Assembly (NCBI GenBank): GCA_000196815.1
Contig: FP929003.1
Span: 868,001 to 932,000, forward strand
Origin: Nitrospira defluvii
Lineage (GTDB): Bacteria; Nitrospirota; Nitrospiria; Nitrospirales; Nitrospiraceae
Direction of reading: 5' to 3'
DNA: 64,000 bases
A program made the translations under genes and the position numbers. Within the stretch, counting starts at the first letter, position 1. Each line of letters starts with the position of its first letter. Shown one piece after another: positions 12,063 through 38,205 of the stretch. The notes under the pieces are model-generated. The model made no database searches and was not told the origin of the DNA. It saw only the letters and a program-made list of their open reading frames with translations.

Positions 12063-12089
12063 TTCTCGGTGAAGTAGAGGAGGGTGGTT

Positions 12090-12815: not shown

Positions 12816-12855
12816 TTTCTCCGATCAGGGACTGCTGAGCAATTAAGGGGAGCGT

Positions 12856-13683: not shown

Positions 13684-13685
13684 GC

Positions 13686-14699
13686 ATGAGGGCGTGGCGA
13701 AGAATACGCGTATTTGGAGCGGTCGCAGTGGTCGTCGGACTCTCGGGCCTCATCGGAGCCGGGGGTTGTTCGATGTTTCAGAACGAACAATCCGCGAAGG
13801 GCAAGAAACTCTATGCTCACTATTGCATGCATTGCCACGGTGAAAATGGAAGACAGAATGAGGGGTTCAATTGGTCCTCAATGACCGACCCGAAACCGAA
13901 GGACTTGTCCAATAAATCTGAAATGGGCACGTTCAAAGACGAAGATATCTTCGCCACGATCTCGCGCGATATGAAGGATACGAGCCCGAACGGCGATAAG
14001 ATCGGCGACGATGAGTTTGCTGTTCCCACCATGCCGACCTTCAAGTACACGTTGTCAGAGGAAGAAATCTGGGGCATCGTCGGCTATGTGCGCTCCTTGC
14101 ATGGTAAGAAGTTGGAATTTAACGTCGAGGGTCGCAAGAAAGAGCTCCAAGACGCCCAGCAGTCCGCTGAGCAAAAGTATAAAGAGGCGGAGCGGTTAGA
14201 GCAGGAAGCCGAGAAGAAAGCCAGCGACGAGGCAGACAAGAAGGGCGTGGAAGTCGACGATAACGCCTACGCCAAAGAAATGCAGGCGATGGGCCAAGCC
14301 AAAAAGGAACTGGACCTGGCGACGGCAGCGGTGACGAATTTCACCACCCGGCCAGGAAAGGGCGTCAATATTGCCCGTCCCGACCTCAATATGAAGCCAG
14401 ATGCGGCCGCGAAACTGGTGGAAGTCGGCAAGCAGATTTATGTCACCAAGTACGGCTGCAACGGATGCCACAAGATCGGTGACGAGGGTGGGAAGGTTGG
14501 TCCTGCGTTGGATCGTGCCGGATACCGTTTGAATCCAACCTGGGTCTACCGGTGGCTGCGCAACCCGCAAGCCATGAAGCCTGATACGCGGATGCCGAGC
14601 TTGGGATTGAATGACGCGGATGCGAAGGCGGTGGCTCTCTATCTGAAAACCCTTCGCGCTCCGAAGCCCGATCAGCCACTCGGGAAAGTGGGCGAATAG
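13686..14699 (+). CDS. Diheme cytochrome c, lipoprotein-like, with coiled-coil linker
   Basis: A 337-residue exported protein starting three bases after the previous stop. The N-terminus is a signal sequence ending in GAGGC, close to a lipobox. Two cytochrome c domains carry CMHCH at residues 47-51 and CNGCH at residues 258-262. Between them lies a long charged helical stretch (around residues 150-205, rich in Lys, Glu, Ala and Gln) that should form a coiled coil and keep the two hemes apart. The second domain resembles those at the ends of electron chains to oxidases (GPALDRAGYR, TRMPSLGL). It is the last gene of the operon and faces the convergent ubiA-like gene with 4 bases between. Confidence 0.85.
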   Translation: MRAWRRIRVFGAVAVVVGLSGLIGAGGCSMFQNEQSAKGKKLYAHYCMHCHGENGRQNEGFNWSSMTDPKPKDLSNKSEMGTFKDEDIFATISRDMKDTSPNGDKIGDDEFAVPTMPTFKYTLSEEEIWGIVGYVRSLHGKKLEFNVEGRKKELQDAQQSAEQKYKEAERLEQEAEKKASDEADKKGVEVDDNAYAKEMQAMGQAKKELDLATAAVTNFTTRPGKGVNIARPDLNMKPDAAAKLVEVGKQIYVTKYGCNGCHKIGDEGGKVGPALDRAGYRLNPTWVYRWLRNPQAMKPDTRMPSLGLNDADAKAVALYLKTLRAPKPDQPLGKVGE

Positions 14700-17844: not shown

Positions 17845-17920
17845 GCCGGCGTAGCTCAGTTGGCAGAGCAGCGGTTTCGTAAACCGCAGGTCGGTGGTTC
17901 GATTCCACTCGCCGGCTCCA
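17845..17920 (+). tRNA. tRNA-Thr (anticodon CGT)
   Basis: A 76-base cloverleaf. The acceptor arm GCCGGCG pairs with CGCCGGC, followed by T and an encoded CCA. The anticodon stem GCGGT/ACCGC closes the loop TTCGTAA, so the anticodon is CGT and reads ACG. The T arm has GGTTCGATTCC. The 3' 49 bases are repeated at 38157-38205, which marks this gene as the integration site of the island to its right. Confidence 0.96.
17872..17920 (+). repeat. attL-type direct repeat (3' part of tRNA-Thr)
   Basis: These 49 bases, from the anticodon stem to the CCA end, recur without mismatch at 38157-38205 in the same orientation. The match stops exactly after CCA. This is the usual footprint of tyrosine-recombinase integration into the 3' end of a tRNA gene, which leaves the tRNA intact. 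Confidence 0.9.
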
Positions 17921-18486: not shown

Positions 18487-18888
18487 GGGCCGCTTGCATA
18501 TTCCGCTGTTGAGAAAATTCTTAACTGCCCAATTCAAAAAATAAGTCGGGAAAAGCTTCGGGAAATGAGGCCGCTGGTAAAGGGTCACGCCGCCCTTTTA
18601 AGGCAGGCAATCCATCACCAAACCATTACTTAAAGTCTGAAAAAAATGAATTCGGCTCCCTTTTCTTGGAAAAATCCGCTCTGGACGCCGTCATGGCTCA
18701 ATGTCTAGATCCTGGGAATACCTAGATGGAATACTTGTATTTCCCCCTCTGCCCACCACCTTCTCGAACGCAGACCTACAGTCCCGCTCGCCGCGACAAT
18801 TAAGCAGTTTAGCTCCGATGAATCATGCATTGACAAAACGATGGCGTTTTCTTACCGTACCTCCAACTTTACGCCCAAAGAGGTTCCT
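18487..18888. other. Gene-free stretch, A+T-rich
   Basis: I see no supported gene here. A TTGACA at 18830-18835 with a weak TACCGT 17 bases later could be the promoter of the Trypco2-like gene that starts at 18889. Confidence 0.4.
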
Positions 18889-19485
18889 ATGCCTAACTAC
18901 CTAATTTCAATAATTATTGCGATAGGCGGTCTAATCTCCTCTTGTCAAACTGTTTCAGCAGACGGAACTAAACGAGACTCTTTGCCAGTTGATGAATTAC
19001 TCACAAAAGTACAGGCCGCTCTTATAACAGTTCAAGATGAAGCGGAAGGTGAGGCTTTGCCTCCGCTCTATAGCGTCAACCTCGACATATCGACACAGTT
19101 CGTCATCGATGGAACTGGCAAGATCAATCTATATGTAATTACTCTCGGTGGAGGCGGAGGAAAGGAGTCTGGACAACTGTTAAAGCTTACCCTGGTCCCC
19201 CCGAAGCCGGGATCTAAAATGCCACACTCCACAGATAACATCTCCGTTGGTTTGGCCAAACTAATTCTTTCGGCAGCTGAAGCCGCAAAGAAGGCGAAAC
19301 TACGAAAACCCCCGCTGACGTTAACCGAGATGTCGGCTCAGATACGTTTCGTTGTTAGGCTGAATGCAGAGGGCGGGGCCAAATTCGAAATAGCTCCTGT
19401 AGGATTTGAATTGGGAGGAAAAGTCAATTCGACCGAAATTCAGGAACTGACCGTCTTGTTTAAGGAAAAGCAGGTAGACAAATGA
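18889..19485 (+). CDS. Trypco2-like lipoprotein, partner of the adjacent trypsin-like protease
   Basis: A 198-residue protein from ATG 18889, which has AGAGG just upstream and gives a lipoprotein signal (IIIAIGGLISSC). The mature part starts with LPVDELLTKVQAALITVQDE and continues with strands (VNLDISTQFVID, GKINLYVITLGGGGGKESGQLLKLTL). This order of a helix and an amphipathic beta-sheet ending in a Gly-rich turn fits Trypco2, a small domain named for its co-occurrence with trypsin-like proteases. A helical segment and a second strand pair follow (SAQIRFVVRLN, GGAKFEIAPVGFELGGK), possibly a second copy. Its stop overlaps the protease start as ATGA, so the two are translated together. Known Trypco2 proteins are mostly cytoplasmic; a lipoprotein form is unusual. 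Confidence 0.65.
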   Translation: MPNYLISIIIAIGGLISSCQTVSADGTKRDSLPVDELLTKVQAALITVQDEAEGEALPPLYSVNLDISTQFVIDGTGKINLYVITLGGGGGKESGQLLKLTLVPPKPGSKMPHSTDNISVGLAKLILSAAEAAKKAKLRKPPLTLTEMSAQIRFVVRLNAEGGAKFEIAPVGFELGGKVNSTEIQELTVLFKEKQVDK

Positions 19486-21113
19486 GGCTACACAATCGAG
19501 TGGTCCTAATACTATTGTCTGCGATTTCACTGATTGGTGCACCATGGGCAGTGAAGTCTTATGCTCAAATGTTCGACCCCTTCGAATGTGGAGAGTTCTA
19601 TTACCGATGGTTTAGTGATCCATTTGAGGCGCTCAGGCTTGTGGATTCGGGATTGTTGAGAATCAAAATTAATGGCGAGCTCGGAACAGGCTTTTTGATC
19701 GACGAAAAGAGGGGTTATGTCTTGACCGCCAAGCATGTAGTGGCTGCAGCGATAGGGACCACAACGCCTCCGAAGATTACAGGTGCATTCAAATACGAGC
19801 CTGACAAATGGTTTGTACTAACGTATGACAACGAAGCTCAGAAGGACGACGTAGCCCTTCTGAGGTTTGAACCAAACGACGCTTCGAAAAATGTGAAGCG
19901 GTTGGACCTGAGTCTCGAATTGCCCCCCGCAGGGACGCAAGTCGCTATAGCAGGATTCGCGTTCGGGGATCCGAAGCTTACTAGCGATACAGGAAGAGCT
20001 TCAGAAATTTTGAACCGACAGTTTGAAGTGCGGGCAAATACTTTTCAGGGAGATAGCGGGGGGCCCGTTATTGACCACTGGGGACTTGTTGTAGGTGTAA
20101 TAACGGACGGAAGGCAACGCGGGATTGCGGTTGCATCTCCAACCGTCGCCTTTAGAAGCCTTTTGATGGATAAAATACCTCCCAGTCAAAGGGCGAAAGA
20201 ATCCATGTCAATAATTGCCTCTGGCAAATTCTCCAAGAACTTTGTAGATACCTTTCGTCCAACACATCCAGACGGTGCGACCACTGCAAATCTAGATCTG
20301 GTACAGCTCATGACCAGCTTAAGTCAGGATGATAAGATCAAACTGAATGATGACTTCCGAAAAGCGGTATCGTGCCCTGTGCATAGAGCGGCTGAAGATA
20401 GACAATTATCCTTCGCTGCTGCTGAAACTATAGCTCCAATGATTGCCAAGTTTTCGAGCCCTAAGGATGCGGCAAAGAGTTTGTTGTCGAGCGCACTTAT
20501 TCTATCTAAGCTGGGAGAGGCTACAACTGCTTCGACTCGCTTTGACCAGGCTGAGAGTGCATATTTCAATGCGATGCTGGCTTACGTCGACAATAAAAAA
20601 CCAACACTTCTCGACGCTTGTCCCGCTACTCGGCCTACGGAGGTTGGTACGGTCTTTTTAAGAGACCTCCACATCTTTCAAACAGACGCCCCGTCAACCG
20701 CTCAAACTGACTGCAAACTGCCTTATCAAGATCAAGAATTGGCAGATCTTATAGCCAGTTACAATTCGGCACGTCTTTGGCGAATAGCCAATAGCATGAA
20801 GCCAACCCCACAAATCGACGTTCAGGCAATTGAAAAGAGCTCAGCGTGGGGAGCATTGATGGCTACCGATACCACAACGTACTCAAGGAATATCATCAAC
20901 ATAGGAGGCAGTTCGTTGGTAAAGAACGATCGGAAAACTGCACGGGCAGCTTTTGCTACGTCATGGCAGGCAGGCATTAGGACAGAGGAAGTTCTCAAGA
21001 ATTACCATGCCGCCACACCTGAGCATTCCGGAGAATCGTATTCGGAATCCGCAGCCAGTATAAATTCTGCAAAAACTTTATCCAGTTCCGATCTTAAGAT
21101 ACTTGCCCGGTAG
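19482..21113 (+). CDS. Exported trypsin-like serine protease with a long helical C-terminal part
   Basis: A 543-residue protein with a signal peptide (ending KSYAQ) and a trypsin-fold domain over residues about 55-250. The catalytic triad is visible: His85 in LTAKHVV, Asp123 in KDDVALLRF and Ser192 in QGDSGGPV. There is no PDZ domain. The last 290 residues are mostly helical and may form TPR-like repeats (FSSPKDAAKSLLSSALILSKLGEATTASTRF), a likely substrate- or partner-binding part. It overlaps the Trypco2-like gene by four bases. The base composition is markedly A+T-rich, which supports horizontal transfer. Substrate unknown. Confidence 0.82.
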   Translation: MRLHNRVVLILLSAISLIGAPWAVKSYAQMFDPFECGEFYYRWFSDPFEALRLVDSGLLRIKINGELGTGFLIDEKRGYVLTAKHVVAAAIGTTTPPKITGAFKYEPDKWFVLTYDNEAQKDDVALLRFEPNDASKNVKRLDLSLELPPAGTQVAIAGFAFGDPKLTSDTGRASEILNRQFEVRANTFQGDSGGPVIDHWGLVVGVITDGRQRGIAVASPTVAFRSLLMDKIPPSQRAKESMSIIASGKFSKNFVDTFRPTHPDGATTANLDLVQLMTSLSQDDKIKLNDDFRKAVSCPVHRAAEDRQLSFAAAETIAPMIAKFSSPKDAAKSLLSSALILSKLGEATTASTRFDQAESAYFNAMLAYVDNKKPTLLDACPATRPTEVGTVFLRDLHIFQTDAPSTAQTDCKLPYQDQELADLIASYNSARLWRIANSMKPTPQIDVQAIEKSSAWGALMATDTTTYSRNIINIGGSSLVKNDRKTARAAFATSWQAGIRTEEVLKNYHAATPEHSGESYSESAASINSAKTLSSSDLKILAR

Positions 21114-21683: not shown

Positions 21684-22553
21684 CGCCCAAGGCGAAGCGA
21701 ACGGCGGCCCAGTGGATGGCCGAGCGCTTTGGGCTGAGTCAGCGACGAGTGTGCCGTTTAATCATGCTCGATCGGAACGCGCTGCGGTTCGCAGTCTTCG
21801 CAGTCGACGCAAGGAGGATGCGGCCCTGCAGACGTGGATTCGAGAGATTGCGGCAACCAAGCGGCGCTATGGGTGTCCCCGGATCTATGTCCGGTTACGG
21901 CGGGAAGGCTGGCGCGTGAATCATAAGAAGGTGGAACGGATCTATTATCCCGACGAGGGGCTGTCGTTACGGCGACGGCGGCGGAAGAAGCTGGCCGCGG
22001 TGCCGCGGGTCGCGCTCCCACGGCCGACGCAGCCGGGGCGCTGTTATGCGCTGGATTTCGTGCATGATCGGCTGGTGACGGGTCGACGGTACAAATGCTT
22101 GACGATGACCGATCTGTGTTCCAAGGAAGTTCCGGTGATTGAAGTGGATGTGTCGATCGGCGGGCACGGGTGTGCCGGATTCTGGATCGGGTGTTTCTGA
22201 CTCGCCCGCTGCCGGAGACGCTGATCCTGGATAACGGGCCTGAATTCGCGGGAATGGCACTCGATGCCTGGGCGGCGCAACATGGCGTGCATCTGCACTT
22301 CATTCAGCCCGGGAAGCCAGTACAGAATGCGTTCATCGAGAGTTTCAACGGCAAGTTTCGGGATGAATGTCTCAACGAACACTGGTTTATGACGTTGCAA
22401 GAAGCGCAGCTTGTGATGGAGGCGTGGCGGCGGGAATACAATGAAGAACGGACGCACAGCGCAATTGGGGATGTTACACCCCAGCAGTTCATTCGTAACC
22501 ATCAAGCCGGGGCCCATCGGACACAGGACTCAACGACCTTGACCGTGGTGTAA
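21677..22553 (+). pseudogene. IS3-family OrfB transposase with two frameshifts
   Basis: The protein can be followed across three frames. The first part, LVAPKAKRTAAQWMAERFGLSQRRVCRLIMLDRN, shifts near 21785 to RSRRKEDAALQTWIREIAATKRRYGCPRIYVRLR and the catalytic core start (ALDFVHDRLV), then shifts again near 22165 to [11 protein letters not shown] and [18 protein letters not shown]. The D, D and E of the DDE triad are therefore split over two frames. The sequence is otherwise well kept, so decay is recent. Confidence 0.85.
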
Positions 22554-27490: not shown

Positions 27491-27895
27491 CGGACATTTA
27501 TATAAAAATGGTTGGATTTGCTTGAGCAAGAGGTTGATTCCTCCTGAGGGAAAGAGTAATCTGCGCGCGTCTCGATGCATGCACTGCTGGTTGCTCTGGG
27601 ATTGGACACCTGGAGGGAACGGTTAGATGAGATTAAGATCTCGACGCTGTTCCATTCTGGCTGCTCCCCCGATCCTTTCGCACGCGCCCCTTCTGTTTCA
27701 GACCCTCGGAATCTCGATTAATGTTTGCTGCCTGAGTGGAACCGAATTGGGGGACCTCCCGTATCTCCCTGAAGCCCTCGCCATCCCGAAGCAGTCCTGG
27801 GATTCTATTACCCATTGGTCTGATAGTCTCTCTTCTGAAATCTTAGATTTTATTTTCAGGGCAGGATCTGTGAGCTTTTCTCAAGGAGGTGGCTC
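27491..27895. other. Non-coding stretch after the IS21 remnant
   Basis: Open frames here are short and do not look like proteins. The last 15 bases hold the AGGAGGTG ribosome binding site of the next gene. Some of it may be further IS debris that I cannot identify. Confidence 0.4.
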
Positions 27896-28345
27896 ATGAA
27901 AATCATACCCGTGCTCTCATTGGCCGCATGTGTTAGTTGGCAAATACCATGTGTATCATCCTGGGCTGCACCCGCCTATCCTGAACCATCTGAACAAGAG
28001 ATGCGCCAGGCGATTGAACAGGCGATGGTTCAACGGGGAGGCACGCAGACTCGTCCCGGTGAAATCAGCGTCGATAATCCTATTAATGGAATGACGATGA
28101 GCATCACTGCTTTTACAAAGTTAGGCTGTGAGCCGGCGAATCGTGGACCAGGGTACGTGTGCTCGTATCATGTCAAGACGAAGATGAGCGCGCATTCAAA
28201 TGAAGGGTCGCGGCAGGGGGATAATCATGCCGCCGCAGTCAATCAATTGCTGCGAGCCATGATGGGGGGGCAAGAAGATGTGGCTGATACTGCGACCCGC
28301 CGCTTCTTGCGAATGGGGAATGAATGGGTCATATCGAGGGAGTAA
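27896..28345 (+). CDS. Small exported protein, function unknown
   Basis: A 149-residue protein with a signal peptide ending SSWAA and a strong ribosome binding site (AGGAGGTG, seven bases before ATG). The mature part has a helix (PSEQEMRQAIEQAMVQR), strands with two cysteines (KLGCEPANRGPGYVCSYHVK) that may form a disulfide, and a charged C-terminus ending in MGNEWVISRE. The pattern is like small secreted proteins that respond to envelope conditions, but no family is recognised. It lies 31 bases before the large beta-helix membrane protein and is likely in the same operon. Confidence 0.72.
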   Translation: MKIIPVLSLAACVSWQIPCVSSWAAPAYPEPSEQEMRQAIEQAMVQRGGTQTRPGEISVDNPINGMTMSITAFTKLGCEPANRGPGYVCSYHVKTKMSAHSNEGSRQGDNHAAAVNQLLRAMMGGQEDVADTATRRFLRMGNEWVISRE

Positions 28346-28376
28346 CAAAAAACCGTCCTCGAGAAGGGTAGTCACA

Positions 28377-30749
28377 ATGTCGATTACCGACGCGCTGATC
28401 CATCTGTTGATCTCGGTGGAAGAAGGCAAGACCGCTGCCTTTGCGGAAAATTCTTCCGATCGAGTTATTCACGCGGAATGGATCCGGCATCTCGTGCTGG
28501 GATTGCCATGGCCGATCGAGGTGCATGAGCGATGGAAGCAAAAGGATTCCACTCACATAATTCCGGGGGGCGGCAGCTCCGTGCCGATCGGTCATACCGG
28601 ACTGCGTATTCGTAACGCACAAATTATTGGCTCTCTCGATCTTTCGGGCTGCGGTTCGACGCAATCGCCACTGCCCGCGCTGTCCCTTGAGGAGTGCAGC
28701 TTCGAAGGGGACGGAGACGAAAATCCCAGTATTGATTTGTCCAGGGCTTCGCTGTGTGGCCTGAATCTCAAAAAGTCTCGGTTCCGGCATTTGCGAGGCG
28801 TCGGTATGACGGTAACTGGATCGGTCGATATATCTGGTCTTCGCCCGATTGAGCAAAACGATCATGCAATATGCTGGTGCAATATGTCTGCATCCATTAT
28901 TCATGGCAGCATCCTGGCCGACGCCGTTGAACTATGTGCTCCAAAGCGTACGGACTGCGACGGGCCTCATGACTACTCGGAAATGGATTGGACTCTAAAC
29001 TTATATGGGAGTCGTATCGAAGGCTCCGTGAGAATCCGTAATAACTCAGCGGTAAATGGCGGTTTAATGTTGGATAGGGCTCGTGTCGCAGGCGACATTG
29101 CGCTTAATGAGGTTGAAGTGACTCCGCGCTTTGAAAGTCCCGCTGTATCACTCGATCGCACTCGTGTTCATGGGAACCTCACACTGATTAATTTGCGTTG
29201 TAGTGGTCTGCTTTGGCTGTTTTTCTGCGAAGTTGATGGATCATGCGACCTCATGGGGGGAAAGATATCCGGAAGTATACTGAAAGGACCTGGAATATCG
29301 GCTTCACTTTACGCAAAGGGCATGTCAGTGCGAGGCTGGACAACCTTATGGGGAGTCAATGTCGATAAGCCAATTTGTCTTGAGGATGCAAAGATCGGTG
29401 GCAATTTGATTGTGAGAGAGGTCAATGTGTCGCCAAGCGTTGAAGTTGAGAAAGGCCCATATTCGGTCAAGGAAGGTGGACTGGTTGCGTGCGGAGCGCG
29501 CGTGGGGGAAACTCTCATTGTGCTGGGAGATAATAAGTTTTCGAAGGGTATCAACCTGACGGATGTTCACTGTTCTATGCTGCAAGATGATCCATCGGAT
29601 TGCGAGAGGACTAAGCCAATTCGGATTGACGGATTTCGATATGAGCGGATCCATGATGAGAAAGGTTCCATTAATGATCCTCTACAGGTTGAGGCCCGGC
29701 TCAAGTGGTGGCTGCCGAAGGACGACCTGTATCGTCCTCAACCTTACGTTCAACTTGCCCAAGTGCTCGCAAATCACGGTCAAGATGCGTTCGTTAGAAG
29801 AGTATTAACTGCGAAAGCCGAGCAAGATGCCGCTCAAGCATGGAATGACAAGCTAAATCAGCCTCCTCCACGTAAGGGGCAACAAGATGCAGGTCAAGCA
29901 TGGAATGACGAGCCGAAACAGGCTACTTCATGGCGCGAGCAATCCGTGAAATTAATAAAATGGTGTGGTCGCAAGGCTTTCTACTATTTTATCGTTTGTC
30001 CTTTTGGGTTCTTTTTTGACTTTGGTCTCTCACCGACCAAGGCTGTGGCCACTGTGATGGCGTTCATCGCGATGGGCTGGGCTCTATTTGCTTTCATGGA
30101 CAGTCGAAATGCTTTGGTCGTTGCGCAGACCCCGGTGACGACCCTGGTACACAAGGACGAGGCGGATCCTAATAAATTCAAGTTTGCATCTGCCTTTGTG
30201 AGTAAGGCAGTGCCCAGGAGCGAGTCAGAAGCAGTGAATGGCCCAGCGTCGGTGCAAAGTCCCCTGTCCAGCAATGTCTCGACGCCTTCGAAGAACTCCG
30301 TACCTACCAATAAGCCGGCGCCAGTCGAAGGGCGGGTATCAGCGCAAAAGCCGGTAACCGTGAAAGTGCCCCCGCCAGTGATAAAACCGGCGCCAGTCAA
30401 AGAAGAGGCATCGCTCGCAGCACTACAGCCTGTTCAAAAGCCGGTAACTGCGCATACGTCGGCAGGAGGGAAGGAAAATCAACACAACGACTACTCCGAT
30501 TCCGATGTTCCCTGCAGAGACAGCATCCGTTTGCTCGTGTATGCGGCTGATGTGTTTATCCCATTGGTTGACCTTCGGGAAGAGGGGAAGTGCGATATCG
30601 ACCAAGCTAAAGGATCGGAGGCGTCTAATTTAGAGATCACGGCCTTTCGCCTCATCAAGGCCCTTTATGCTATCCTCGGATGGTTAGTAACCGGAGCGGC
30701 GGTAGTAACCGTCTCCGGCGTCATGCGGCACCGCTTATTGCGTGACTAG
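28377..30749 (+). CDS. Large beta-helix membrane protein with proline-rich linker
   Basis: A 790-residue protein from the ATG at 28377. Residues about 75-430 are repeats of about 20 residues of the type LxxCxFxGDLDLSxxxL, IxGSVxI, IxGDIxL, predicted to form a right-handed beta-helix; similar proteins in actinobacteria are often labelled membrane-associated oxidoreductase without proof. A helical part follows with a near-repeat (EQDAAQAWND and QQDAGQAWND, 60 bases apart). Then come two membrane helices, a Pro/Val/Lys-rich linker with repeats of KPAPVK/KPVTVK type, a cysteine-containing segment and a final membrane helix. Some frame upstream of 28377 is open but lacks a ribosome binding site. 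Function unknown; the fold suggests surface or protein binding. Confidence 0.72.
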   Translation: MSITDALIHLLISVEEGKTAAFAENSSDRVIHAEWIRHLVLGLPWPIEVHERWKQKDSTHIIPGGGSSVPIGHTGLRIRNAQIIGSLDLSGCGSTQSPLPALSLEECSFEGDGDENPSIDLSRASLCGLNLKKSRFRHLRGVGMTVTGSVDISGLRPIEQNDHAICWCNMSASIIHGSILADAVELCAPKRTDCDGPHDYSEMDWTLNLYGSRIEGSVRIRNNSAVNGGLMLDRARVAGDIALNEVEVTPRFESPAVSLDRTRVHGNLTLINLRCSGLLWLFFCEVDGSCDLMGGKISGSILKGPGISASLYAKGMSVRGWTTLWGVNVDKPICLEDAKIGGNLIVREVNVSPSVEVEKGPYSVKEGGLVACGARVGETLIVLGDNKFSKGINLTDVHCSMLQDDPSDCERTKPIRIDGFRYERIHDEKGSINDPLQVEARLKWWLPKDDLYRPQPYVQLAQVLANHGQDAFVRRVLTAKAEQDAAQAWNDKLNQPPPRKGQQDAGQAWNDEPKQATSWREQSVKLIKWCGRKAFYYFIVCPFGFFFDFGLSPTKAVATVMAFIAMGWALFAFMDSRNALVVAQTPVTTLVHKDEADPNKFKFASAFVSKAVPRSESEAVNGPASVQSPLSSNVSTPSKNSVPTNKPAPVEGRVSAQKPVTVKVPPPVIKPAPVKEEASLAALQPVQKPVTAHTSAGGKENQHNDYSDSDVPCRDSIRLLVYAADVFIPLVDLREEGKCDIDQAKGSEASNLEITAFRLIKALYAILGWLVTGAAVVTVSGVMRHRLLRD

Positions 30750-30889
30750 CGGCCTTGCGGCTGTGCCCAAGCTAACCGTGTACGGACCCCGAGTAGTGAA
30801 GCCGTTACTGATCGAGTTGCCGATGATGTAGGTGTTGCCGTTGAGAGAGGGGGCTTTCTTTAACCTTACAACCTATAAGGAGGAAGAAT

Positions 30890-31138
30890 ATGGACCCAGC
30901 AAGTGCGGAGCTTATCAGAGCCAGGATTGATGCATTGCAAAACATGTCAAAGACCGAACCACATCTTCGCAACGAGATCAGAACGAATGTGACCGGATTT
31001 TTTGAGAAGCACGGCCTTATAGACAACAACCACAGTATCGAGCGTACACGATCTGAAGCTCGTCACAATGCAGGCGCTATCCACCTTTGTCCCTGGCACA
31101 CCTGCGCAGCAACCCGGCATGGTATGCCTCAGTCGTAA
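30890..31138 (+). CDS. Candidate lanthipeptide precursor
   Basis: An 82-residue peptide with an excellent ribosome binding site (AAGGAGG, six bases before ATG). The first 43 residues are a charged helical leader with IDALQN at residues 13-18, which fits the Ile/Leu-x-x-Leu-Gln leader motif recognised by class III synthetases (labyrinthopeptin has ILELQN at a similar place). The C-terminal part holds Ser49, Thr53, Ser55, Thr71, Thr75 and Ser82 and only two cysteines, Cys67 and Cys72, enough for one or two thioether rings, plus four His. The stop is three bases before the synthetase start. Leader motif, position and composition all fit; the core boundary cannot be set by eye. Confidence 0.72.
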   Translation: MDPASAELIRARIDALQNMSKTEPHLRNEIRTNVTGFFEKHGLIDNNHSIERTRSEARHNAGAIHLCPWHTCAATRHGMPQS

Positions 31139-31141
31139 GAA

Positions 31142-33817
31142 TTGACTTCCTCTCGGCGGCAATGCGTGGCGGAAACCTTTTCCGCCACGCTCGAGAAATG
31201 TTCGGCAAACCTTCCTGCTCATTGGCTCACCTGTGATTGGGCTCAAGGCTCCCTCTCCTGGCGCTCGTTCTCACTTTCGGATAGGTTGCTTCCTGCACAA
31301 GGCTGGAAACTGCACGTGTCGGCAGGAGCGGCCGAGGCCGCCGGTATGTACTCATTGGTCATTCCCCGTCTCCTACAACTAGAAGCTGCCTTCAAGGTCG
31401 CCCGTAACCTTGATGACGTTGTCTTTATTAATTCGGGGGATGGAGGCGTGACCCAATTGGGAAAAGTGATGACCATCTACCCAATGAGTGATCATCACGC
31501 CAGAGAAATTGTGCTGGAGGTCGATCGTGTTTGGCCGCGAAGTCGTGGTCCCGAAGTTCAGAGCGATTTGCACATCCGGCCGGGATCGGCCGTATCGTTG
31601 CGTTATGGAACGTTCACTTCGCCGACGGTCGTAGTCAACGAATCCGGACTATACGAGTTTGCGTTGTGTGGTTCGAATGGCACGCTGGTCCCTGATAGAC
31701 GACAGAATCAGGGAGAGCAACCGCAACTTGCGACGCCTCCACCTATTGATGGTTGTCGGCCTCGTCAACATCCAGTAAAGCTCCAAGTTCCCTTCATCGC
31801 CAACGAGAAGGAGTTTGTTGCTTTAACGTCATTGAGCGAATCCCCTAGCAAGCAAATATTTCTGGGCCTTGCAATCGACACACTTCAAAGTGTGATCATT
31901 AAGGTGGGTATTCCGGGAGTTGCCGGCGATCACAGAGGCCTCGATGTCAGGGATCGCCTGAGGAAAGAGTTTTCCGTTCTCTCGGCGCTTTCAGGAGAAA
32001 TCGGGCTTGCGCCGAGACCACTTGAGTGGTTCGAGCATGAATGGCCGATAGCGGTTACGGAAGATTTTAGAGGTAGAATCGTTGCGGAGCTGAGTCGAGC
32101 GCAGCAGATATCATCTTTGACTTCCCTTGCACATGCAGTGGTTCGGTTGCACGGAGCCGGGTTCGTTCATGGTGACATCAAGCTTGAGAATGCGGTGCTT
32201 CGAGGACAACATGTGGGACTGATCGACTTTGAGTTAGCAGAGCATGAAGGCGAGGTGGCAGGGGTAGGAGGTACAAGAGGGCATTTGGCAGCAGAGGTTA
32301 CGGCCGATGCTGAAGCGGCCTTCTCGCGGGACATCTACGCCCTTGGTGGTTGTCTGGCTCATGCATGCCTGGGGGTTCCGCCAGGATTATTGCCCGCCGG
32401 CATCGGGAAGCTCAGAGGATTCTTGCAACTTGAAGGTTTACAGCCGGCCGCTAAGCTGATCAGCGATTTGTGTCACGCCGATCCTGTAAGGCGCCCAAGC
32501 GCTAAGGATGCTGAAGATGCGATATCCGTTCGGATCACGCCGCTCTCATCACGGTCGATAACCCGCGGATGGCCGAGCAGTAGGGAAGATCTCAACTGGT
32601 GTCGTCGGTCAAGTATCGGCGCAGGTGGTTTGGCGGCCAGATATTGGCGAGAACAAGGGGGGGGAGGATGGAGTAACGACCATTTCATGCGATCCTTTAT
32701 CTGCGAGGGCATTAATATTGGTGCGGCTGGCATTGTGCTCGGTCTCATTGCTATTGAGACAGCCCTTAACCGGTCTGATTTTAGTGGACAGATACTGCAA
32801 GGAGCGGAGTGGCTAAGCGCAAGACCACCTCTGGGCAAAGCCGTTGGATTTTTCACGGGGGATGCTGGAGTCGCGGTTGCCCTGGCTCTTTGCGGACAGC
32901 GCCTCCATAACCAGAAATACCTTGTTGCTGCGAAGAAACGGTTCGAATCGGCCTGCGCGAATTCTCGTGAACTTGACTTGTTTTCTGGTACAGCTGGAGT
33001 GCTGTGGGCAGGTTGTATCCTGAACGATATTTTGAAAGCATCATGGCCGTTAGAGTCAGTACGTGATCGTGTACAGCATATAAATCGATACTTGCGTAAT
33101 GCAGATGGGATTCCGGTTTGGTCGCTAGAGCTAGGATCGGATGTTTCTTACTTGGGATGTGCGCACGGCTCTGCTGGCATCGCCATGGCACTTGGATGCT
33201 GGGGGCAACGCGCCGCAGACCAAGATTGCAGTGAGATTGCCATGCGAACGTTTCAGCAGATAGCGAAACAGGGGCCGACCGAAGACGGGCGGGCATTAAG
33301 AATGACCGCCGACTCTCAGCGGCATCATGCCGCTGGGAATTGGTGCCATGGGGTCGCTGGGTACCTGTGGGCTATTCTGCAAGCTTTTGGAGATACGCCC
33401 GCTCTTCGCGAGGAGATCGACTGGGCGGTGGGCATTCTCAAAGAGCAGCCATCAGTGGGCACTCCTACCTACTGCCACGGATTGGCCGGACAGCTCGAAT
33501 TGTGGCGTATGCTCAGTGGAATCCGGCGTTTCCAAACATTTGCGGCGGCCCGTGCAGTAAAGGTGGCGCGTGCTCTACGCTGTGCCCATAGCAAACAGGA
33601 CGGAGCGTGCGTTTGGGTTTCTGATGATCCTGACGTGGTCACTCCTGATCTCTGGATCGGCTTTCTTGGGCCTGCAACTGCATTGGCCCTTCATGCATCC
33701 CGAAGCTGCTGGCCTTTGTTATCAGGAGAGTGGCTGACTGCCTGCTGTAATTCAGAAAGTCGGCACGGACAAGATATGTCGGTAGTAGGAGGGAAAAAAG
33801 CTGATACGAATGGATGA
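31142..33817 (+). CDS. Lanthipeptide synthetase, LanL/LanKC type (lyase-kinase-cyclase)
   Basis: An 891-residue protein with three parts. The N-terminal lyase-like region has GWKLHVSA with Lys56 and His58, the residues expected to eliminate phosphate from phospho-Ser/Thr. The kinase has VIIKVG near residue 250, HGDIKLEN at 343-350 and IDFE at 361-364. The C-terminal LanC-like domain has CAHGSAG at 673, WCHG with Cys735, and YCHG with Cys778 and His779, a full zinc set. Zinc ligands favour class IV (LanL); class III LanKC proteins usually lack them, although the precursor motif is class III-like. The start is a weak TTG (31142) or GTG (31166), in contrast with the strong site of the precursor. 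It would phosphorylate, dehydrate and cyclise the peptide. Confidence 0.88.
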   Translation: MTSSRRQCVAETFSATLEKCSANLPAHWLTCDWAQGSLSWRSFSLSDRLLPAQGWKLHVSAGAAEAAGMYSLVIPRLLQLEAAFKVARNLDDVVFINSGDGGVTQLGKVMTIYPMSDHHAREIVLEVDRVWPRSRGPEVQSDLHIRPGSAVSLRYGTFTSPTVVVNESGLYEFALCGSNGTLVPDRRQNQGEQPQLATPPPIDGCRPRQHPVKLQVPFIANEKEFVALTSLSESPSKQIFLGLAIDTLQSVIIKVGIPGVAGDHRGLDVRDRLRKEFSVLSALSGEIGLAPRPLEWFEHEWPIAVTEDFRGRIVAELSRAQQISSLTSLAHAVVRLHGAGFVHGDIKLENAVLRGQHVGLIDFELAEHEGEVAGVGGTRGHLAAEVTADAEAAFSRDIYALGGCLAHACLGVPPGLLPAGIGKLRGFLQLEGLQPAAKLISDLCHADPVRRPSAKDAEDAISVRITPLSSRSITRGWPSSREDLNWCRRSSIGAGGLAARYWREQGGGGWSNDHFMRSFICEGINIGAAGIVLGLIAIETALNRSDFSGQILQGAEWLSARPPLGKAVGFFTGDAGVAVALALCGQRLHNQKYLVAAKKRFESACANSRELDLFSGTAGVLWAGCILNDILKASWPLESVRDRVQHINRYLRNADGIPVWSLELGSDVSYLGCAHGSAGIAMALGCWGQRAADQDCSEIAMRTFQQIAKQGPTEDGRALRMTADSQRHHAAGNWCHGVAGYLWAILQAFGDTPALREEIDWAVGILKEQPSVGTPTYCHGLAGQLELWRMLSGIRRFQTFAAARAVKVARALRCAHSKQDGACVWVSDDPDVVTPDLWIGFLGPATALALHASRSCWPLLSGEWLTACCNSESRHGQDMSVVGGKKADTNG

Positions 33818-34637
33818 GTATCAACACACATTCCTTGTTGATGGCGTAGTTTACATCAGCAAGGCTCTTGACCAACGAGGGATCGAGGCTGCGGAGGGTG
33901 CTTTTCGTTGGACGTTAAGCCATCCCGGACCGGGAGCCAGATACGTGTTGGCAGGCCGGCCAGGTGCATTCTTTCAGGATCACGCTAACCCGAATGCGAT
34001 CACAGCCTACCGCTCTCTGCTCTGTGAAACGCCACTGTCCAAATTAGTGGCGGATGTGCTTGGCACTCAGAATCTTTGGTTGCTCTACGAACAGATCTGG
34101 CTCAAAGAAGGCTGTGAAACACTTCCAACACCCTGGCACCAAGATCTGCCGTATGTTCCGATGAGCGGGGAGCATCTGGCTACGGTCTGGCTCACATTGG
34201 ATCCTGTTCGTAAAGACAAGTCTCTTGAATTTGTACGCGGGTCACATCGTGGGCCTCTTTTTAACCCCACTGCGTTCAATGCTACCGACTCCACCGCCGC
34301 GATGTTTGAAGCAGGAGTATGGCCGCCTTTACCCGATATTGAGTCGAAGCGCGAGCAATACGATATTGTTTCCTGGGCGGTTGAACCTGGCGATGTGATC
34401 ATCTTTCACCCCGCCATACTGCACGGTGGTGCACCGACTTGTTCTGGAGAAAAACGGCGCACAATCTCGCTTCGTTTTTTTGGCGATCACGCCTTCTGTG
34501 CTGAACGACCGGAGAAAGGCGTGGCGGAGGTAGACCGACTGCTGGTCGAGCAAGATACTAGCGATCCAATGAGGCAGATGGCCAAGCTCCAACCCGGTAC
34601 GCTGTTCCGCCACCCGGGATTTCACAAAGTGGTGTAA
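33810..34637 (+). CDS. PhyH-type Fe(II)/2-oxoglutarate dioxygenase
   Basis: A 275-residue protein overlapping the synthetase end by eight bases, so the two are likely co-translated. It has the iron triad of the phytanoyl-CoA dioxygenase family: His110 and Asp112 in PWHQDLPY, His205 in LHGGAP, and an Arg (Arg217) after it for 2-oxoglutarate. Nothing in it resembles the halogenase variant, since the Asp is kept. In natural-product clusters such enzymes hydroxylate amino acid side chains or peptides. Here the natural substrate may be the modified peptide of the adjacent genes. Confidence 0.85.
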   Translation: MDEYQHTFLVDGVVYISKALDQRGIEAAEGAFRWTLSHPGPGARYVLAGRPGAFFQDHANPNAITAYRSLLCETPLSKLVADVLGTQNLWLLYEQIWLKEGCETLPTPWHQDLPYVPMSGEHLATVWLTLDPVRKDKSLEFVRGSHRGPLFNPTAFNATDSTAAMFEAGVWPPLPDIESKREQYDIVSWAVEPGDVIIFHPAILHGGAPTCSGEKRRTISLRFFGDHAFCAERPEKGVAEVDRLLVEQDTSDPMRQMAKLQPGTLFRHPGFHKVV

Positions 34638-34741
34638 GTTCGTGCTTCGAATGGTTGATGGGAATGTCTCAGTGCGAATGCGGGCTCTCTCAGTGAATAG
34701 TCGAAATTAGTGCCTGAAGACCAGGACGGGATAATGGGGCT

Positions 34742-35620
34742 ATGATGCGCTTCCGCAAGCTCGGCGGGGCATTGGGTGCCGAGGTGACAGGTCTTAACCT
34801 GCAGACACCTCTTGGTCGGTGCGAGGCCGACCAGTTGACGAAGGAGTGGTTTCGACACGGTGTGCTGGTCTTTCGAGGGCAAATGATCACCGATGAAGAG
34901 CATGTGCGCTTCGCCCGTCGTTTTGGTCGCCTTGAAACTTTCACCCAGCCAAACGGTATTGCTTCTTTTGTTCCCGAGATCTTTTGCTCGGCCAACACGG
35001 ACGAGTCAGGGCGGCTACTGCCGTCCGACGATGAGCGAATCAAAATGCTACGGTTGAATTGGCTGTGGCACATCGACAGTTCTTATCGCGCAATGCCTGT
35101 TAAGGGGGTAGTCCTGCGGGCCCTCCATGTAGCCGAGGAAGGCGGCGATACGATCTTTGCCGACAATGTCGCAGCGTTTGAAGCATTACCCGGCACCATA
35201 AAGACACGTATCGAGGGTCTCAGGGCGATCCATAACTTCGCGTATCTAGTCCGCCAGCAAGGAGGCGATTTGCGCCCGGAGGAGGTGGCAAGTTTGCCGC
35301 GTGCTGAGCATCCCCTAGTCCGTCGGCATGCGGATGGACGTCGATCGCTGTATCTGAGTCCGCCCTACATGGAAAAGATCGTGGGATGGAGCGAGGCCGA
35401 CAGTTGTGCGTTGCTCCACGAGCTGATGGCCTGGGCAACGCAGGAGCGGTTCCTCTTCCGTCACCGCTGGCAGCTGCATGATGTGATCATGTGGGATAAT
35501 GCGTGGACCATGCATTGCGTCACCCCATACGACGTTGCTCGTCACAGACGCGTCGTACACGGTGTCACGATTCTTGGAGAGGAGCCTGTCCTTCCCATGA
35601 AGGCTATTCCACAACCTTAG
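34742..35620 (+). CDS. TauD/TfdA-family Fe(II)/2-oxoglutarate dioxygenase
   Basis: A 292-residue protein with the family fold: GAEVTGLNLQTPL at the start, the iron ligands His110 and Asp112 in LWHIDSSY, distal His258 in WTMHCVTPYD and Arg269/Arg270 for 2-oxoglutarate. Relatives such as TauD and TfdA hydroxylate small sulfonates or aryl ethers, but many members act in peptide natural products. It follows the PhyH gene by 104 bases on the same strand, with no transporter or sulfonate gene around, which makes tailoring of the lanthipeptide the more likely role. It converges with the 572-residue gene to its right. Confidence 0.87.
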   Translation: MMRFRKLGGALGAEVTGLNLQTPLGRCEADQLTKEWFRHGVLVFRGQMITDEEHVRFARRFGRLETFTQPNGIASFVPEIFCSANTDESGRLLPSDDERIKMLRLNWLWHIDSSYRAMPVKGVVLRALHVAEEGGDTIFADNVAAFEALPGTIKTRIEGLRAIHNFAYLVRQQGGDLRPEEVASLPRAEHPLVRRHADGRRSLYLSPPYMEKIVGWSEADSCALLHELMAWATQERFLFRHRWQLHDVIMWDNAWTMHCVTPYDVARHRRVVHGVTILGEEPVLPMKAIPQP

Positions 35621-35791
35621 CTTTCAATCACTAATAACGAATGCAATTGCGGAGAAACCGGGTATTGCCTTGAATTTGTATTGAATGCTGGTTACGAGTA
35701 TTGCCAAACATGTGTTTGGACTTGCGAAGTACGTAATCGTGCTCTACTCAACCTGCGATAGTCCGCAATCGGTTTCCGATACTCGACGGGT

Positions 35792-37510
35792 TTAAGGATG
35801 ATCGTTCATGTGATCGCTGCGGGATGGGTCGTGCTCATCTGCCAATGGGGAGGTGAGCAGCGCCAGTAATCCCAAGACGAACTTATCGTGGATATCCTGC
35901 CGATAATACGATCCGAGGGCAGTGAAATAGGATGAGACTCGCGATGCCGGGTTTTGCGTATCGATGAGGAATTCGGATATCTGGCTTAGTTGGCTGAAGT
36001 AGTCTCTCGGATCGGCAGCGTGGTCGCATTGGAGGTAGCACAGGCATCGCTGGCTGCGCAATTGAAACGCTGCCTCTCGACAGGTGGACGCCAACTCACT
36101 GTAATTGGAGCGACCGACGGTGGCGGGATAGTTATCAGTGATGCCGCTGCCTTCACGTGAGACTTGCAGGAACGCCTTCCCCGAGCTGATCATCAGGCTA
36201 GACGTGGCTTGACCTTCAAACAGCCCTGGAAGCGCACTTCGCACATAAAAGGCGTTGTACACATCCGCCGGCACGGGACCGAGCAGCGCCATAATGATAT
36301 CGTGATGGGTGGCGAGGCTCATCGTCGTTTCGAGAGCCGACGAAATATCAACCGTGCCACACTTTGAGTCGTAACCCGACAAATATGTGATACGGGAACC
36401 TCGTTCAATCCAGGGCCTCGCATGTCGTGCCGTTTCGACGACGAACTGGTCCAATCGCTCGGCTGACAATTGATCTTCACTACCCTGAACCCTGGCATAT
36501 TCTTGCTTGAGCGCAGTCCGAAAGGTACTGAGTTCAACATTCCCAGACGCGAGATCGTGGGCGAACGGCGTTAACAATGCCTCGAAATGTGGAATGGCTG
36601 TTGGCTTATTAAAAAAGCAAGCCATGATCGGGCGCCTAAGGGTTTGTTGAACACTAAAGGCAATGAAAAGGATGTTCATGGCCATTTCGGCGATCTGGTC
36701 GCGAAATTGGTGCAGCCCGTAGAGTGGCCAGAGGGCAAGGACGCTGTTTTCTTCCCAGGCTCGGCAGACGGCTCGTGCATTCCTCGTGCTGATTTGGAGG
36801 TCCTGGTCGAAGTCTTGGATGGTGGAATACCAATTCCAGGTCTGCTCCGATACGTTGGCGCACAAGGAAGGTGGAACTGTAACAGGGAGGTTCCGAAAGG
36901 AGGAATGGGCATCCACCATATAGAAGTATTGCCCCTGGGGCGTTTCAACCCTGGAACTTGCATAATGTGGATCGGCCTTCTTAGATGCCTCATCGTCCCA
37001 GAGATATGGCTGGAGTCGAAGAAAGCATGTAACCTTGAGCTCTCTAGCGAAGTTGATCGACATGTCGTCCGCTCCACCGGTGAAGCCCAGGGGCACTTCG
37101 ACCCTGAGGCGGTCACGGTCTCCGTAGGGAAGAAAGGAGATGTGGCGACATGGGCCGTAGGTCAGTACCGATGTGTCGATCCATCGCGGATCCAACCCCG
37201 GCAAGAGCACGGCTAACTTGTACGCTGTGCTGTTCGGTGGCAGGTTGAGGTTTTCGGCGAAGATAATGCGGATTCGTCCGGCATAGCCTGTTCTGTCAAT
37301 CAGTCGTCTCATGAGGTTGACTGAAGCGGCCTGATGGCCAAAATGGTGTGTCCCGTCTATGAAGAACCGAATTTCTTTTTGATCGTTGATGAGCGAGAAC
37401 ACGTCCTGGAGAACCCGCGTCGTCTCAGGATCTTCCCCCATTTCCATTTGCAGGAAAGTCTCAACAATGTGTCTAAAGTGCTCCATGTGATCGGCGGACA
37501 ATCTTTTCAC
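35792..37510 (-). CDS. 572-residue protein of unknown function beside the lanthipeptide cluster
   Basis: No signal peptide and no clear membrane helix. The N-terminal half starts with a helix and then IRFFIDGTHHFGHQAASVNLM, GYAGRIRIIFAENL and further strands, an alpha/beta (Rossmann-like) pattern with His/Gly-rich loop such as glycosyltransferases have. A second alpha/beta half follows: RPIMACFFNKPTAIPHFEALL, SRITYLSGYD, HDIIMALLGPVP. Together this is like two Rossmann domains with a helical C-terminus, as in GT-B enzymes, but no signature motif is present and I cannot name a family. It is convergent with the TauD gene and may be a separate unit of the island. Confidence 0.65.
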   Translation of the reverse strand: MKRLSADHMEHFRHIVETFLQMEMGEDPETTRVLQDVFSLINDQKEIRFFIDGTHHFGHQAASVNLMRRLIDRTGYAGRIRIIFAENLNLPPNSTAYKLAVLLPGLDPRWIDTSVLTYGPCRHISFLPYGDRDRLRVEVPLGFTGGADDMSINFARELKVTCFLRLQPYLWDDEASKKADPHYASSRVETPQGQYFYMVDAHSSFRNLPVTVPPSLCANVSEQTWNWYSTIQDFDQDLQISTRNARAVCRAWEENSVLALWPLYGLHQFRDQIAEMAMNILFIAFSVQQTLRRPIMACFFNKPTAIPHFEALLTPFAHDLASGNVELSTFRTALKQEYARVQGSEDQLSAERLDQFVVETARHARPWIERGSRITYLSGYDSKCGTVDISSALETTMSLATHHDIIMALLGPVPADVYNAFYVRSALPGLFEGQATSSLMISSGKAFLQVSREGSGITDNYPATVGRSNYSELASTCREAAFQLRSQRCLCYLQCDHAADPRDYFSQLSQISEFLIDTQNPASRVSSYFTALGSYYRQDIHDKFVLGLLALLTSPLADEHDPSRSDHMNDHP

Positions 37511-38156
37511 TTCTGAGCAAGGGTGGGTTCTAGGGTAGACTGTTTATCATGGCGGAGACGAATGGCCAAGTGCGTGGGCGAAATACTGCTTTATTAGAAC
37601 CTGTCTCAAAATAGCTGAGCTTATGAGAAAGCCATTTTCATGGGCCGACATGTTGCCCCGATGCAATCCCAACAACAAATCCGTGCTTCGCCGGTTCTAA
37701 CACTGGTGCCAATTGATGTGCGGTGCGAGATTCTGGCCCAGTTGGCGAATACGTTGCGCGAGGAAGCGCCCTTGATGAGCGCGAGAGTTATCGATGCCAC
37801 GTTTTCGACAGCAAAGGGCGATGCTGGGCGCCTCACCAGTGCATCAACTGAAAGCCTTGGGATTGACCGGATTCGGCGAGCGCTAGATTGAATTCAGCAT
37901 CTCTGCCCTCAAAGAGAAAGCACCGAAACCGTCAAAGGGATATTTGATTTTGCCGGCAAGTGAGAAGGCGGATAAAAGCTAAAAATAGCATGGTTTCGGT
38001 CAGTGCAGGTTTGATTTATCCCGCATTATGGACGTGACAAAATCGTGACGGGCTATGCCGGAATCGGCAGGATCTTGTTTGAAAATTGTTAATCTCATGT
38101 TTTGATAATGTCCGGGAGACCATTTATAAAATCAATACGTTATGGTAGTAACGTGC
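37511..38156. other. Right end of the island without a supported gene
   Basis: A short frame at 37640-37891 (part: MSARVIDATFSTAKG) has a hint of a transposase but nothing decisive. A sequence starting ACCTGTCTCAAAA near 37600 looks like an IS5-type end, again weakly. This stretch, next to the attachment repeat, may contain decayed mobility genes. Confidence 0.35.
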
Positions 38157-38205
38157 CGGTTTCGTAAACCGCAGGTCGGTGGTTCGATTCCACTCGCCGG
38201 CTCCA
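38157..38205 (+). repeat. attR-type direct repeat (tRNA-Thr 3' fragment)
   Basis: A 49-base exact copy of 17872-17920 including the CCA end. No acceptor 5' half, D arm or promoter precedes it, so it is a fragment, not a tRNA gene. Confidence 0.9.

What the first reader, a model, noticed from the sequence alone, without database searches (positions are those of the whole stretch)
30890..35620. Lanthipeptide-type cluster with two dioxygenases in a Nitrospira-like island
A short peptide with a strong ribosome binding site, an IDALQN leader motif and a Ser/Thr/Cys-containing tail is followed by a lyase-kinase-cyclase synthetase and, overlapping or close, PhyH and TauD dioxygenases. Lanthipeptides with two different Fe/2OG tailoring enzymes are rare, and I know of no described product from this phylum. 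There is no transporter or protease gene nearby, so export and leader removal must rely on other genes or on a novel path.
Basis: partly seen in the sequence, partly recalled or inferred. Interest (0 to 1): 0.82.

Follow-up and report, generated by a model that had tools for sequence, protein, structure and literature searches.

The report
Mobile lanthipeptide cluster in Nitrospira relative
A nitrite-oxidiser-like bacterium carries, on a chromosomal island inserted in a tRNA gene, a small gene set that probably makes a ring-containing, oxidised peptide with an enzyme from a little-studied branch of the lanthipeptide makers.

Summary
The four genes are real and collinear: precursor 30890-31138, lyase-kinase-cyclase synthetase 31142-33817, PhyH 33810-34637, TauD 34742-35620. 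They lie in a 9.7-kb block (27879-37591) found in one of 28 other genomes of the genus. There the precursor is kept in frame; its last 19 residues are identical (5 synonymous, 0 nonsynonymous codon differences), the leader 54% identical. The block also holds a 149-residue, an 823-residue and a convergent 572-residue protein. It sits in a tRNA-Thr island here (49-bp exact end repeats) and in a tRNA-Arg island with an integrase in the other species. The synthetase has the zinc ligands typical of class IV but misses both curated cut-offs. It falls in a branch with synthetases of several phyla; all nine rows of that branch have an NHLP-like precursor in the locus, against two weak hits in the other 73 loci. 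In 80 relatives' loci no PhyH relative and one distant TauD relative was found. The predicted core allows no ordinary Ser/Thr-before-Cys ring, so Cys-first rings or dehydration without rings are predicted. Chemistry is untested. Verdict: new variant of a known kind.

The parts
17845..17920 (+). tRNA-Thr (CGT), left boundary of the island; its last 49 bp (17872-17920) are one end repeat
   Evidence: ARAGORN; self-match 17872-17920 = 38157-38205, 100%, E 7.6e-23
38157..38205 (+). 49-bp exact copy of the tRNA-Thr 3' part, right boundary of the ~20.3-kb island (att-like repeat)
27879..37591 (.). 9.7-kb block shared collinearly with a second genome (G022), 74-79% nucleotide identity where blastn aligns (28847-29623 aligns only as protein); flanks in the fetched 35 kb of G022 are not shared
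   Evidence: blastn; window ORFs against G022
27896..28345 (+). 149-aa protein with signal-peptide-like start (by eye), function unknown, 88% identical in G022
   Evidence: no Pfam family
28278..30749 (+). 823-aa frame (real start probably downstream of 28345): beta-helix-like repeats, then a hydrophobic C-terminus (both by eye); 62% identical in G022
   Evidence: no Pfam family
30890..31078 (+). precursor, leader part (63 aa), NHLP-like, ends ..HNAGA (HNSGS in G022)
   Evidence: found in 2 of 29 genus genomes; HMM of six relatives' precursors ranks this and the G022 precursor first among 713 ORFs
31079..31138 (+). precursor, predicted core IHLCPWHTCAATRHGMPQS plus stop; 19 of 19 residues identical in G022, 5 synonymous and 0 nonsynonymous codon differences
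31142..33817 (+). lanthipeptide synthetase (lyase-kinase-cyclase), class IV-like, with Zn ligands C735, C778, H779
33810..34637 (+). PhyH-type Fe(II)/2OG dioxygenase; H110-x-D112 and H205 present; nearest solved relative MysH
   Evidence: 86% identical in G022
34742..35620 (+). TauD-type Fe(II)/2OG dioxygenase; H110-x-D112 and H258 present
   Evidence: 81% identical in G022
35792..37510 (-). 572-aa protein, convergent; found in the same 2 of 295 phylum genomes; related to the N-terminal part of a 4096-aa LysM/Ig-like protein of Azospirillum sp. B510
   Evidence: no Pfam family

Best explanation
A mobile (tRNA-island) lanthipeptide-type RiPP cluster. The 82-residue precursor is bound through its NHLP-like leader by the synthetase. 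The kinase domain phosphorylates Ser/Thr of the core, the lyase domain eliminates phosphate to give dehydroamino acids, and the zinc-bearing cyclase adds Cys thiols to them. In the predicted core no Ser/Thr lies before C4, and T8 directly precedes C9, so the most likely rings are Cys-first: C4 with T8 and C9 with T12. The PhyH and TauD enzymes then probably hydroxylate or otherwise oxidise core residues (His, Trp, Pro are candidates). Leader removal and export use genes elsewhere. Shown: genes, domains, conserved catalytic residues, conservation of the block, island borders. Inferred: every chemical step, their order, ring pattern, cleavage site and export.
For: Domains. Residues with known roles in these families are present and shared with the relatives: K56, H58, K108, R154, D345, N350 in 80 of 80 rows, K85 and D362 in 79, K254 and H675 in 77, C735 and C778 in 75, H779 in 72 (roles recalled). 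Precursor conserved in position and frame in G022; core 19/19 against leader 34/63 identical (Fisher p 6e-5, border chosen after seeing the alignment), dN 0 in the core. Same gene order over 9.7 kb in two different tRNA islands. PhyH and TauD are among the best-conserved proteins of the block (86%, 81%; dN/dS 0.09, 0.17) and keep their metal-binding triads. Relatives of the synthetase have NHLP-like precursors nearby; an HMM from six of these gives the window precursor 20.3 bits, the best of 2000 shuffles 7.1, and also finds two such frames in L028, which was not in the training set.
Against: The synthetase is below both NCBIfam cut-offs (356 of 650 bits class IV, 222 of 575 class III). The precursor matches no curated RiPP family. 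No exporter or protease is in the block; the single C39-domain hit of the genome looks like a non-proteolytic type I secretion form. In 80 relatives' loci no PhyH relative (best E 0.36) and one TauD relative 6.5 kb away (L063) was found, so the tie of the dioxygenases to the peptide rests on two genomes. The predicted core has no ordinary Ser/Thr-then-Cys pair with room for a ring.
Confidence: 0.72

Rival explanations
1. The synthetase modifies the precursor, but PhyH and TauD act on another substrate (a small molecule, lipid or something tied to the 572-aa protein), so the product is a plain lanthipeptide.
For: In 80 relatives' loci no PhyH relative and one distant TauD relative was found; TauD is closest in the PDB to small-molecule enzymes (2,4-D dioxygenase, taurine dioxygenase), PhyH to MysH, recalled as a small-molecule (mycosporine) enzyme.
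Against: PhyH overlaps the synthetase gene by 8 nt, and both oxygenases stayed with the block in both islands at 81-86% identity.
Confidence: 0.35
2. The modified peptide is not a secreted antagonist but a conserved functional molecule, such as a metal-binding peptide or a signal: the core (HxCxxHxC, then HGM) is rich in possible metal ligands and the dioxygenases tune it.
For: Core unchanged (dN 0) while the leader changes; three His, two Cys and one Met in 19 residues (sequence).
Against: Only two sequences and 19 residues; no metal transport family among the proteins of the block scanned.
Confidence: 0.2
3. Dehydration only: the cyclase closes no rings on this core, and the product is a dehydrated, oxidised linear peptide or one with a disulfide.
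For: Inside the predicted core the only Ser/Thr before a Cys is T8, adjacent to C9 (sequence).
Against: Zn ligands and the catalytic His of the cyclase are present; Cys-first rings are known in cinnamycin-type lanthipeptides (recalled); a Thr/Ser position upstream (RTR/RSR) is kept in both precursors and could serve if cleavage lies further upstream.
Confidence: 0.22
4. A decaying island remnant without function.
For: Found in 2 of 29 genus genomes; no convincing integrase beside the window copy; leader dN/dS 0.40.
Against: All frames open, catalytic residues present, dN/dS 0.07-0.17 for five genes (149-aa, synthetase, PhyH, TauD, 572-aa), 0.30 for the 823-aa gene and 0 for the core.
Confidence: 0.07

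Closest known systems
Class IV lanthipeptide synthetases (LanL; venezuelin and SgbL systems, names recalled)
   Same: Lyase-kinase-cyclase order, Zn ligands C-C-H and catalytic His, best curated match
   Different: 356 of the 650 bits required; NHLP-like leader, unlike the ALQxL-family precursors annotated beside the Kitasatospora LanL; separated from 25 actinobacterial rows by a 100/99 branch
Class III synthetases (LanKC)
   Same: Lyase-kinase-cyclase architecture; IDALQN resembles the LxLQ motif that PMC7268733 (passages read) gives for class III leaders
   Different: Class III enzymes are metal-independent (recalled; title of PMC10604976 in the listing), here the zinc ligands are present; weaker profile match, 222 of 575 bits
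Class II lanthipeptides and proteusins with NHLP/Nif11 leaders
   Same: Leader type of the relatives (L027 matches TIGR03793 at 8.7e-6, below cut-off); PMC7268733 (passages read) reports NHLP leaders for class II families
   Different: The synthetase here is of LanL/LanKC architecture, not LanM; PMC7268733 states that LanMs were the only lanthipeptide enzymes in Cyanobacteria, while L027 is a Xenococcaceae LanL-like enzyme beside an NHLP-like precursor
Fe/2OG-tailored lanthipeptides (duramycin, DurX) and the proteusin hydroxylase PoyI (PMC10373908, passages read)
   Same: An Fe(II)/2OG enzyme that acts on a lanthipeptide or proteusin precursor
   Different: Two different Fe/2OG families (PhyH and TauD) encoded together with a LanL-like enzyme; searches for class IV lanthipeptide + dioxygenase + LanL (no paper) and lanthipeptide + phytanoyl-CoA dioxygenase (one paper, on thioamide clusters, passages read) show no such system in the held library

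Membership tests
Lanthipeptide (any class) | Genetically encoded precursor with Ser/Thr and Cys beside a dehydratase/cyclase | tested here: met
Lanthipeptide (any class) | Lanthionine or methyllanthionine rings in the product | not testable with these tools
   needs mass spectrometry or NMR
Class IV (LanL) | Lyase, Ser/Thr kinase and LanC-like cyclase in one chain | tested here: met
   RamC_N, Pkinase, LANC_like; aligned over nearly the full length of NF038150 and NF038151 and to 8car residues 44-799
Class IV (LanL) | Zinc ligands Cys, Cys, His in the cyclase | tested here: met
   C735, C778, H779, with H675
Class IV (LanL) | Score above NCBI's curated class IV cut-off (NF038150) | tested here: not met
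   356.3 bits against 650; G022 334, L025 383, L026 345 also below
Class III (LanKC) | Score above NCBI's curated class III cut-off (NF038151) | tested here: not met
   221.7 bits against 575
NHLP leader (TIGR03793 and kin) | Match to the curated leader model | tested here: not met
   window and G022 precursors: no match; precursors of L025, L027, L029, L030 and L015 match NHLP-type models below cut-off, that of L026 none
NHLP leader (TIGR03793 and kin) | Similarity to leaders beside related synthetases | tested here: met
   HMM of six relatives: window 1.9e-5 and G022 8.7e-6, next ORF 0.37, of 713; 2000 shuffles at most 7.1 bits against 20.3. With two or four training rows the window is still first (0.0027, 0.0022), but the G022 precursor ranks third behind an unrelated ORF
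tRNA-integrated genomic island | tRNA gene, direct repeat of its 3' end at the far border, integrase | tested here: met
   G022: tRNA-Arg, 48-bp repeat (98%), Phage_integrase 5.5e-37. Window: tRNA-Thr and 49-bp repeat, but no convincing integrase
Fe(II)/2OG dioxygenases (PhyH, TauD) | Family match and HxD...H triad | tested here: met

The most novel reading that the evidence does not exclude
The synthetases of this branch (Nitrospira-type, Microbispora, Pseudonocardia, Xenococcaceae, Thermomicrobiales, Alphaproteobacteria, Haematobacter, Neobacillus) are a separate, cross-phylum class of lanthipeptide makers that combine a LanL-like enzyme with NHLP-like leaders; the Nitrospira member, spread by tRNA islands, makes a doubly oxidised peptide with Cys-first rings that serves the producer, perhaps as a metal-binding molecule, and not as a bacteriocin.
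Probability: 0.2. Interest if true: 0.82.

Novelty: new variant of a known kind. Interest (0 to 1): 0.62.

Why it matters
Nitrite-oxidising Nitrospira matter for wastewater treatment and soils. A 2022 survey (PMC9765116, passages read; supplements not seen) reports several RiPP clusters in every Nitrospira genome it compared, and its main text does not contain the word lanthipeptide. A LanL-like synthetase with an NHLP-type leader and two different Fe/2OG enzymes on a mobile island would open untested chemistry and is a compact, expressible four-gene set. If the branch with NHLP-like leaders holds up, it changes how classes III and IV are drawn.

Tried and rejected
The first genome-contig scan, with the synthetase alone, confirmed no relative; the second, with a three-row alignment, confirmed 97 and kept 80, so lower-scoring relatives were not seen. 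Cleavage by an in-trans C39 peptidase-transporter was considered because the predicted site reads G-A / G-S (GG in L025 and L026; no such site in L027, L029, L030): each of G000 and G022 has one C39-domain hit, but Thr stands where the catalytic Cys is expected (DTGLL; C39 motif recalled), and C39-domain hits occur in 27 of 29 genus genomes, so it is probably an ordinary type I secretion transporter; rejected. An in-trans M1 (AplP-like) protease remains possible: two M1 hits in each genome; PMC10885120 (passages read) describes such proteases for class III and IV. The 572-aa protein folded without an alignment gave pLDDT 39, unusable; no PDB sequence match at E up to 1, no viral relative. A GT-B glycosyltransferase reading of it, from motifs seen by eye, is not supported by any tool. 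The 823-aa protein as an exporter was dropped for lack of any transporter match. Promoter- and terminator-like sites were no more frequent than in shuffles. The amoA search was uninformative because no control rang.

Literature, held library only. Lanthipeptide + Nitrospira: 11 papers, 10 listed, judged by title and start of abstract, none on a Nitrospira lanthipeptide, not opened. Class IV lanthipeptide + dioxygenase + LanL: none. Lanthipeptide + phytanoyl-CoA dioxygenase: one, passages read. Three broader searches listed 15 of 98, 15 of 61 and 10 of 10 papers; proteusin + LanKC: two. Passages were read in PMC7268733, PMC10676384, PMC10885120, PMC8120280, PMC9765116 and PMC10373908; no paper was read whole.
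Full report
What is there. AAGGAGG stands six bases before the ATG of the 82-aa precursor; three bases separate its stop from the TTG start of the synthetase, PhyH overlaps the synthetase by 8 nt, and TauD starts 104 nt after PhyH. Pfam supports each enzyme: RamC_N, Pkinase and LANC_like in the synthetase, PhyH, TauD. The precursor matches no family at E up to 1 in Pfam and NCBIfam.

Conservation. A full-length relative of the synthetase occurs in 1 of the 60 relatives first searched (G022, same genus, 73% identity; the other matches there are kinase-only) and in 1 of the 28 other genomes of the genus (the same one). In G022 the precursor lies in the same place, with 34 of 63 leader and 19 of 19 core residues identical; codons of the core differ 5 times synonymously and never nonsynonymously, those of the leader 9 and 29 times. 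The core border was drawn after seeing the alignment, so the Fisher p of 6e-5 is indicative only. Gene by gene: 149-aa protein 88% identity, 823-aa 62%, synthetase 73%, PhyH 86%, TauD 81%, 572-aa 76%, all with dN/dS of at most 0.30; leader 0.40; core 0.

The unit is larger than four genes. Blastn shows a collinear block from 27879 to 37591, with a stretch (28847-29623) that aligns only as protein; outside it, in the fetched 35 kb of G022, only tRNA sequence matches. A protein comparison of window ORFs adds one far match, a sigma-54-type regulator (54146-56851). The 572-aa gene was found in the same 2 of 295 phylum genomes, the 823-aa gene in the same 2 of 29 genus genomes. RamC_N matches 4 of 295 phylum genomes and passes its cut-off in these 2. 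The 295 are a sample of the phylum, so further copies may exist.

An island. In the window, tRNA-Thr(CGT) lies at 17845-17920, and its last 49 bp recur exactly at 38157-38205; the block is inside, with lower G+C than the rest of the window (0.535 against 0.581). In G022 the block follows a tRNA-Arg(CCT) and a phage-type integrase (Pfam 5.5e-37), with a 48-bp repeat (98%) at the far side. Beside the window copy no convincing integrase was found: the best match, 23% identity and E 0.001 at 27506-27943, lies where a remnant would be expected but partly within the shared block. Two tRNA sites with different flanks mean that the block has moved between genomes or sites.

The enzyme. I picked 14 positions of the window enzyme whose roles are known in these families (recalled) and compared 80 full-length rows: lyase K56, H58, K85, K108, R154; kinase K254, D345, N350, D362; cyclase H675, C735, H736, C778, H779. 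Thirteen are shared by 72 to 80 rows, H736 by 34. The zinc ligands point to class IV, as does the profile score (356 bits class IV, 222 class III), but neither curated cut-off is reached; the same holds for G022, L025 and L026. The nearest relatives found are in Microbispora (39%) and Pseudonocardia (34%), then cyanobacterial, Thermomicrobiales and alphaproteobacterial enzymes at 28-29%.

A branch with NHLP-like leaders. In a tree of 34 rows that I picked from the 80, window, G022, L025-L030 and L059 lie on one side of a 100/99 branch and 25 actinobacterial rows on the other. The root is a midpoint and no characterised enzyme is included, so class names are not anchored on the tree; the Nitrospira-type rows also have an unusual amino-acid make-up. 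All nine rows have an NHLP-like precursor in the locus: window and G022, L025, L026, L027, L029, L030, L059 and, twice, L028. An HMM built from six of them (L025, L026, L027, L029, L030 and L015, the plasmid copy of L059) was not trained on window, G022 or L028. It ranks the window and G022 precursors first of 713 ORFs (1.9e-5, 8.7e-6; next 0.37) and finds the two L028 frames at about 5e-9 and 8e-9. With only two or four training rows the window stays first, but the G022 precursor falls behind an unrelated ORF. The window precursor scores 20.3 bits, the best of 2000 shuffles 7.1. Over 15094 frames of all 80 loci, the seven branch loci score 5e-9 or better; of the other 73 loci only L101 (0.006) and L097 (0.026) score below 0.05. 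An earlier, narrower scan of 470 ORFs near 77 synthetases had missed L028 and L059, whose frames are longer than its limit or further away. Curated NHLP models match relatives' precursors below cut-off only (L027 8.7e-6, others weaker, L026 none) and not those of window and G022. [quoted passage not shown]

The dioxygenases. Both keep the HxD...H triad. Tblastn of the window PhyH and TauD against the 80 relatives' loci (up to 8 kb on each side, some cut by contig ends) found no PhyH relative (best E 0.36) and one TauD relative, in L063 at 16819-17082 (E 9e-10), 6.5 kb from the synthetase. Other oxygenase families there would be missed. So two Fe/2OG enzymes are a feature of the Nitrospira-type block, not of the branch.

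Export and cleavage. Of 37 window ORFs scanned with Pfam (the threshold was 1e-6 in the last two) none is an ABC exporter; proteases are a trypsin-like gene in the island (19482-21113) and a trypsin-PDZ gene at 61619-62746. The single C39-domain hit of G000 and of G022 lacks the expected Cys, and C39-domain hits occur in 27 of 29 genus genomes. Two M1 peptidases per genome leave an AplP-like route open (PMC10885120, passages read).

Mechanism. The most likely course is leader-guided phosphorylation, elimination and thiol addition by the synthetase, oxidation by PhyH and TauD, and leader removal and export by genes elsewhere. In the core IHLCPWHTCAATRHGMPQS, T8 stands directly before C9 and no Ser/Thr before C4, so ordinary rings inside this core are not possible; Cys-first rings C4-T8 and C9-T12 are my prediction (precedent cinnamycin, recalled). 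If cleavage lies further upstream, the Thr/Ser kept at RTR/RSR could take part. None of this chemistry has been tested.

Bottom line. The observation and most of the interpretation stand. The finding is a new variant of a known kind, with good evidence for a maintained, mobile cluster and open chemistry.

Noticed in passing
35792-37510 and L105:12001-13464: The 572-aa protein is a free-standing relative (33%) of the N-terminal part of a 4096-aa LysM/Ig-like protein on Azospirillum sp. B510 plasmid pAB510d, which is followed by an ABC transporter gene; no known family.
   Followed up: partly
18841-21113: A trypsin-co-occurring domain protein (Trypco2) and a trypsin-like protease lie side by side in the tRNA-Thr island, outside the shared block.
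   Followed up: no
21712-22200: Frame that reads like part of an IS3-type transposase (judged by eye), inside the island.
   Followed up: no
L027:209-3112: LanL-like synthetase with an NHLP-like precursor in a Xenococcaceae cyanobacterium, although PMC7268733 reports only LanM enzymes from Cyanobacteria.
   Followed up: partly
L028:6911-7588 and 12424-12816: Two NHLP-like precursor frames on either side of one LanL-like synthetase in a Thermomicrobiales MAG; the second ends in a Cys-rich tail.
   Followed up: no
L025:7995-10604 and L026:7632-10619: The two nearest relatives have Arg in place of the kinase Lys (K254 of the window enzyme).
   Followed up: no
L015:7336-7776: Haematobacter precursor with two near-identical Cys-rich core repeats in one frame, beside a LanL-like synthetase on a plasmid.
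   Followed up: no
3816-14699: bd-oxidase-like, Rieske, cytochrome b and cytochrome c genes just left of the island, which fits a Nitrospira-type respiratory cluster (recalled).
   Followed up: no
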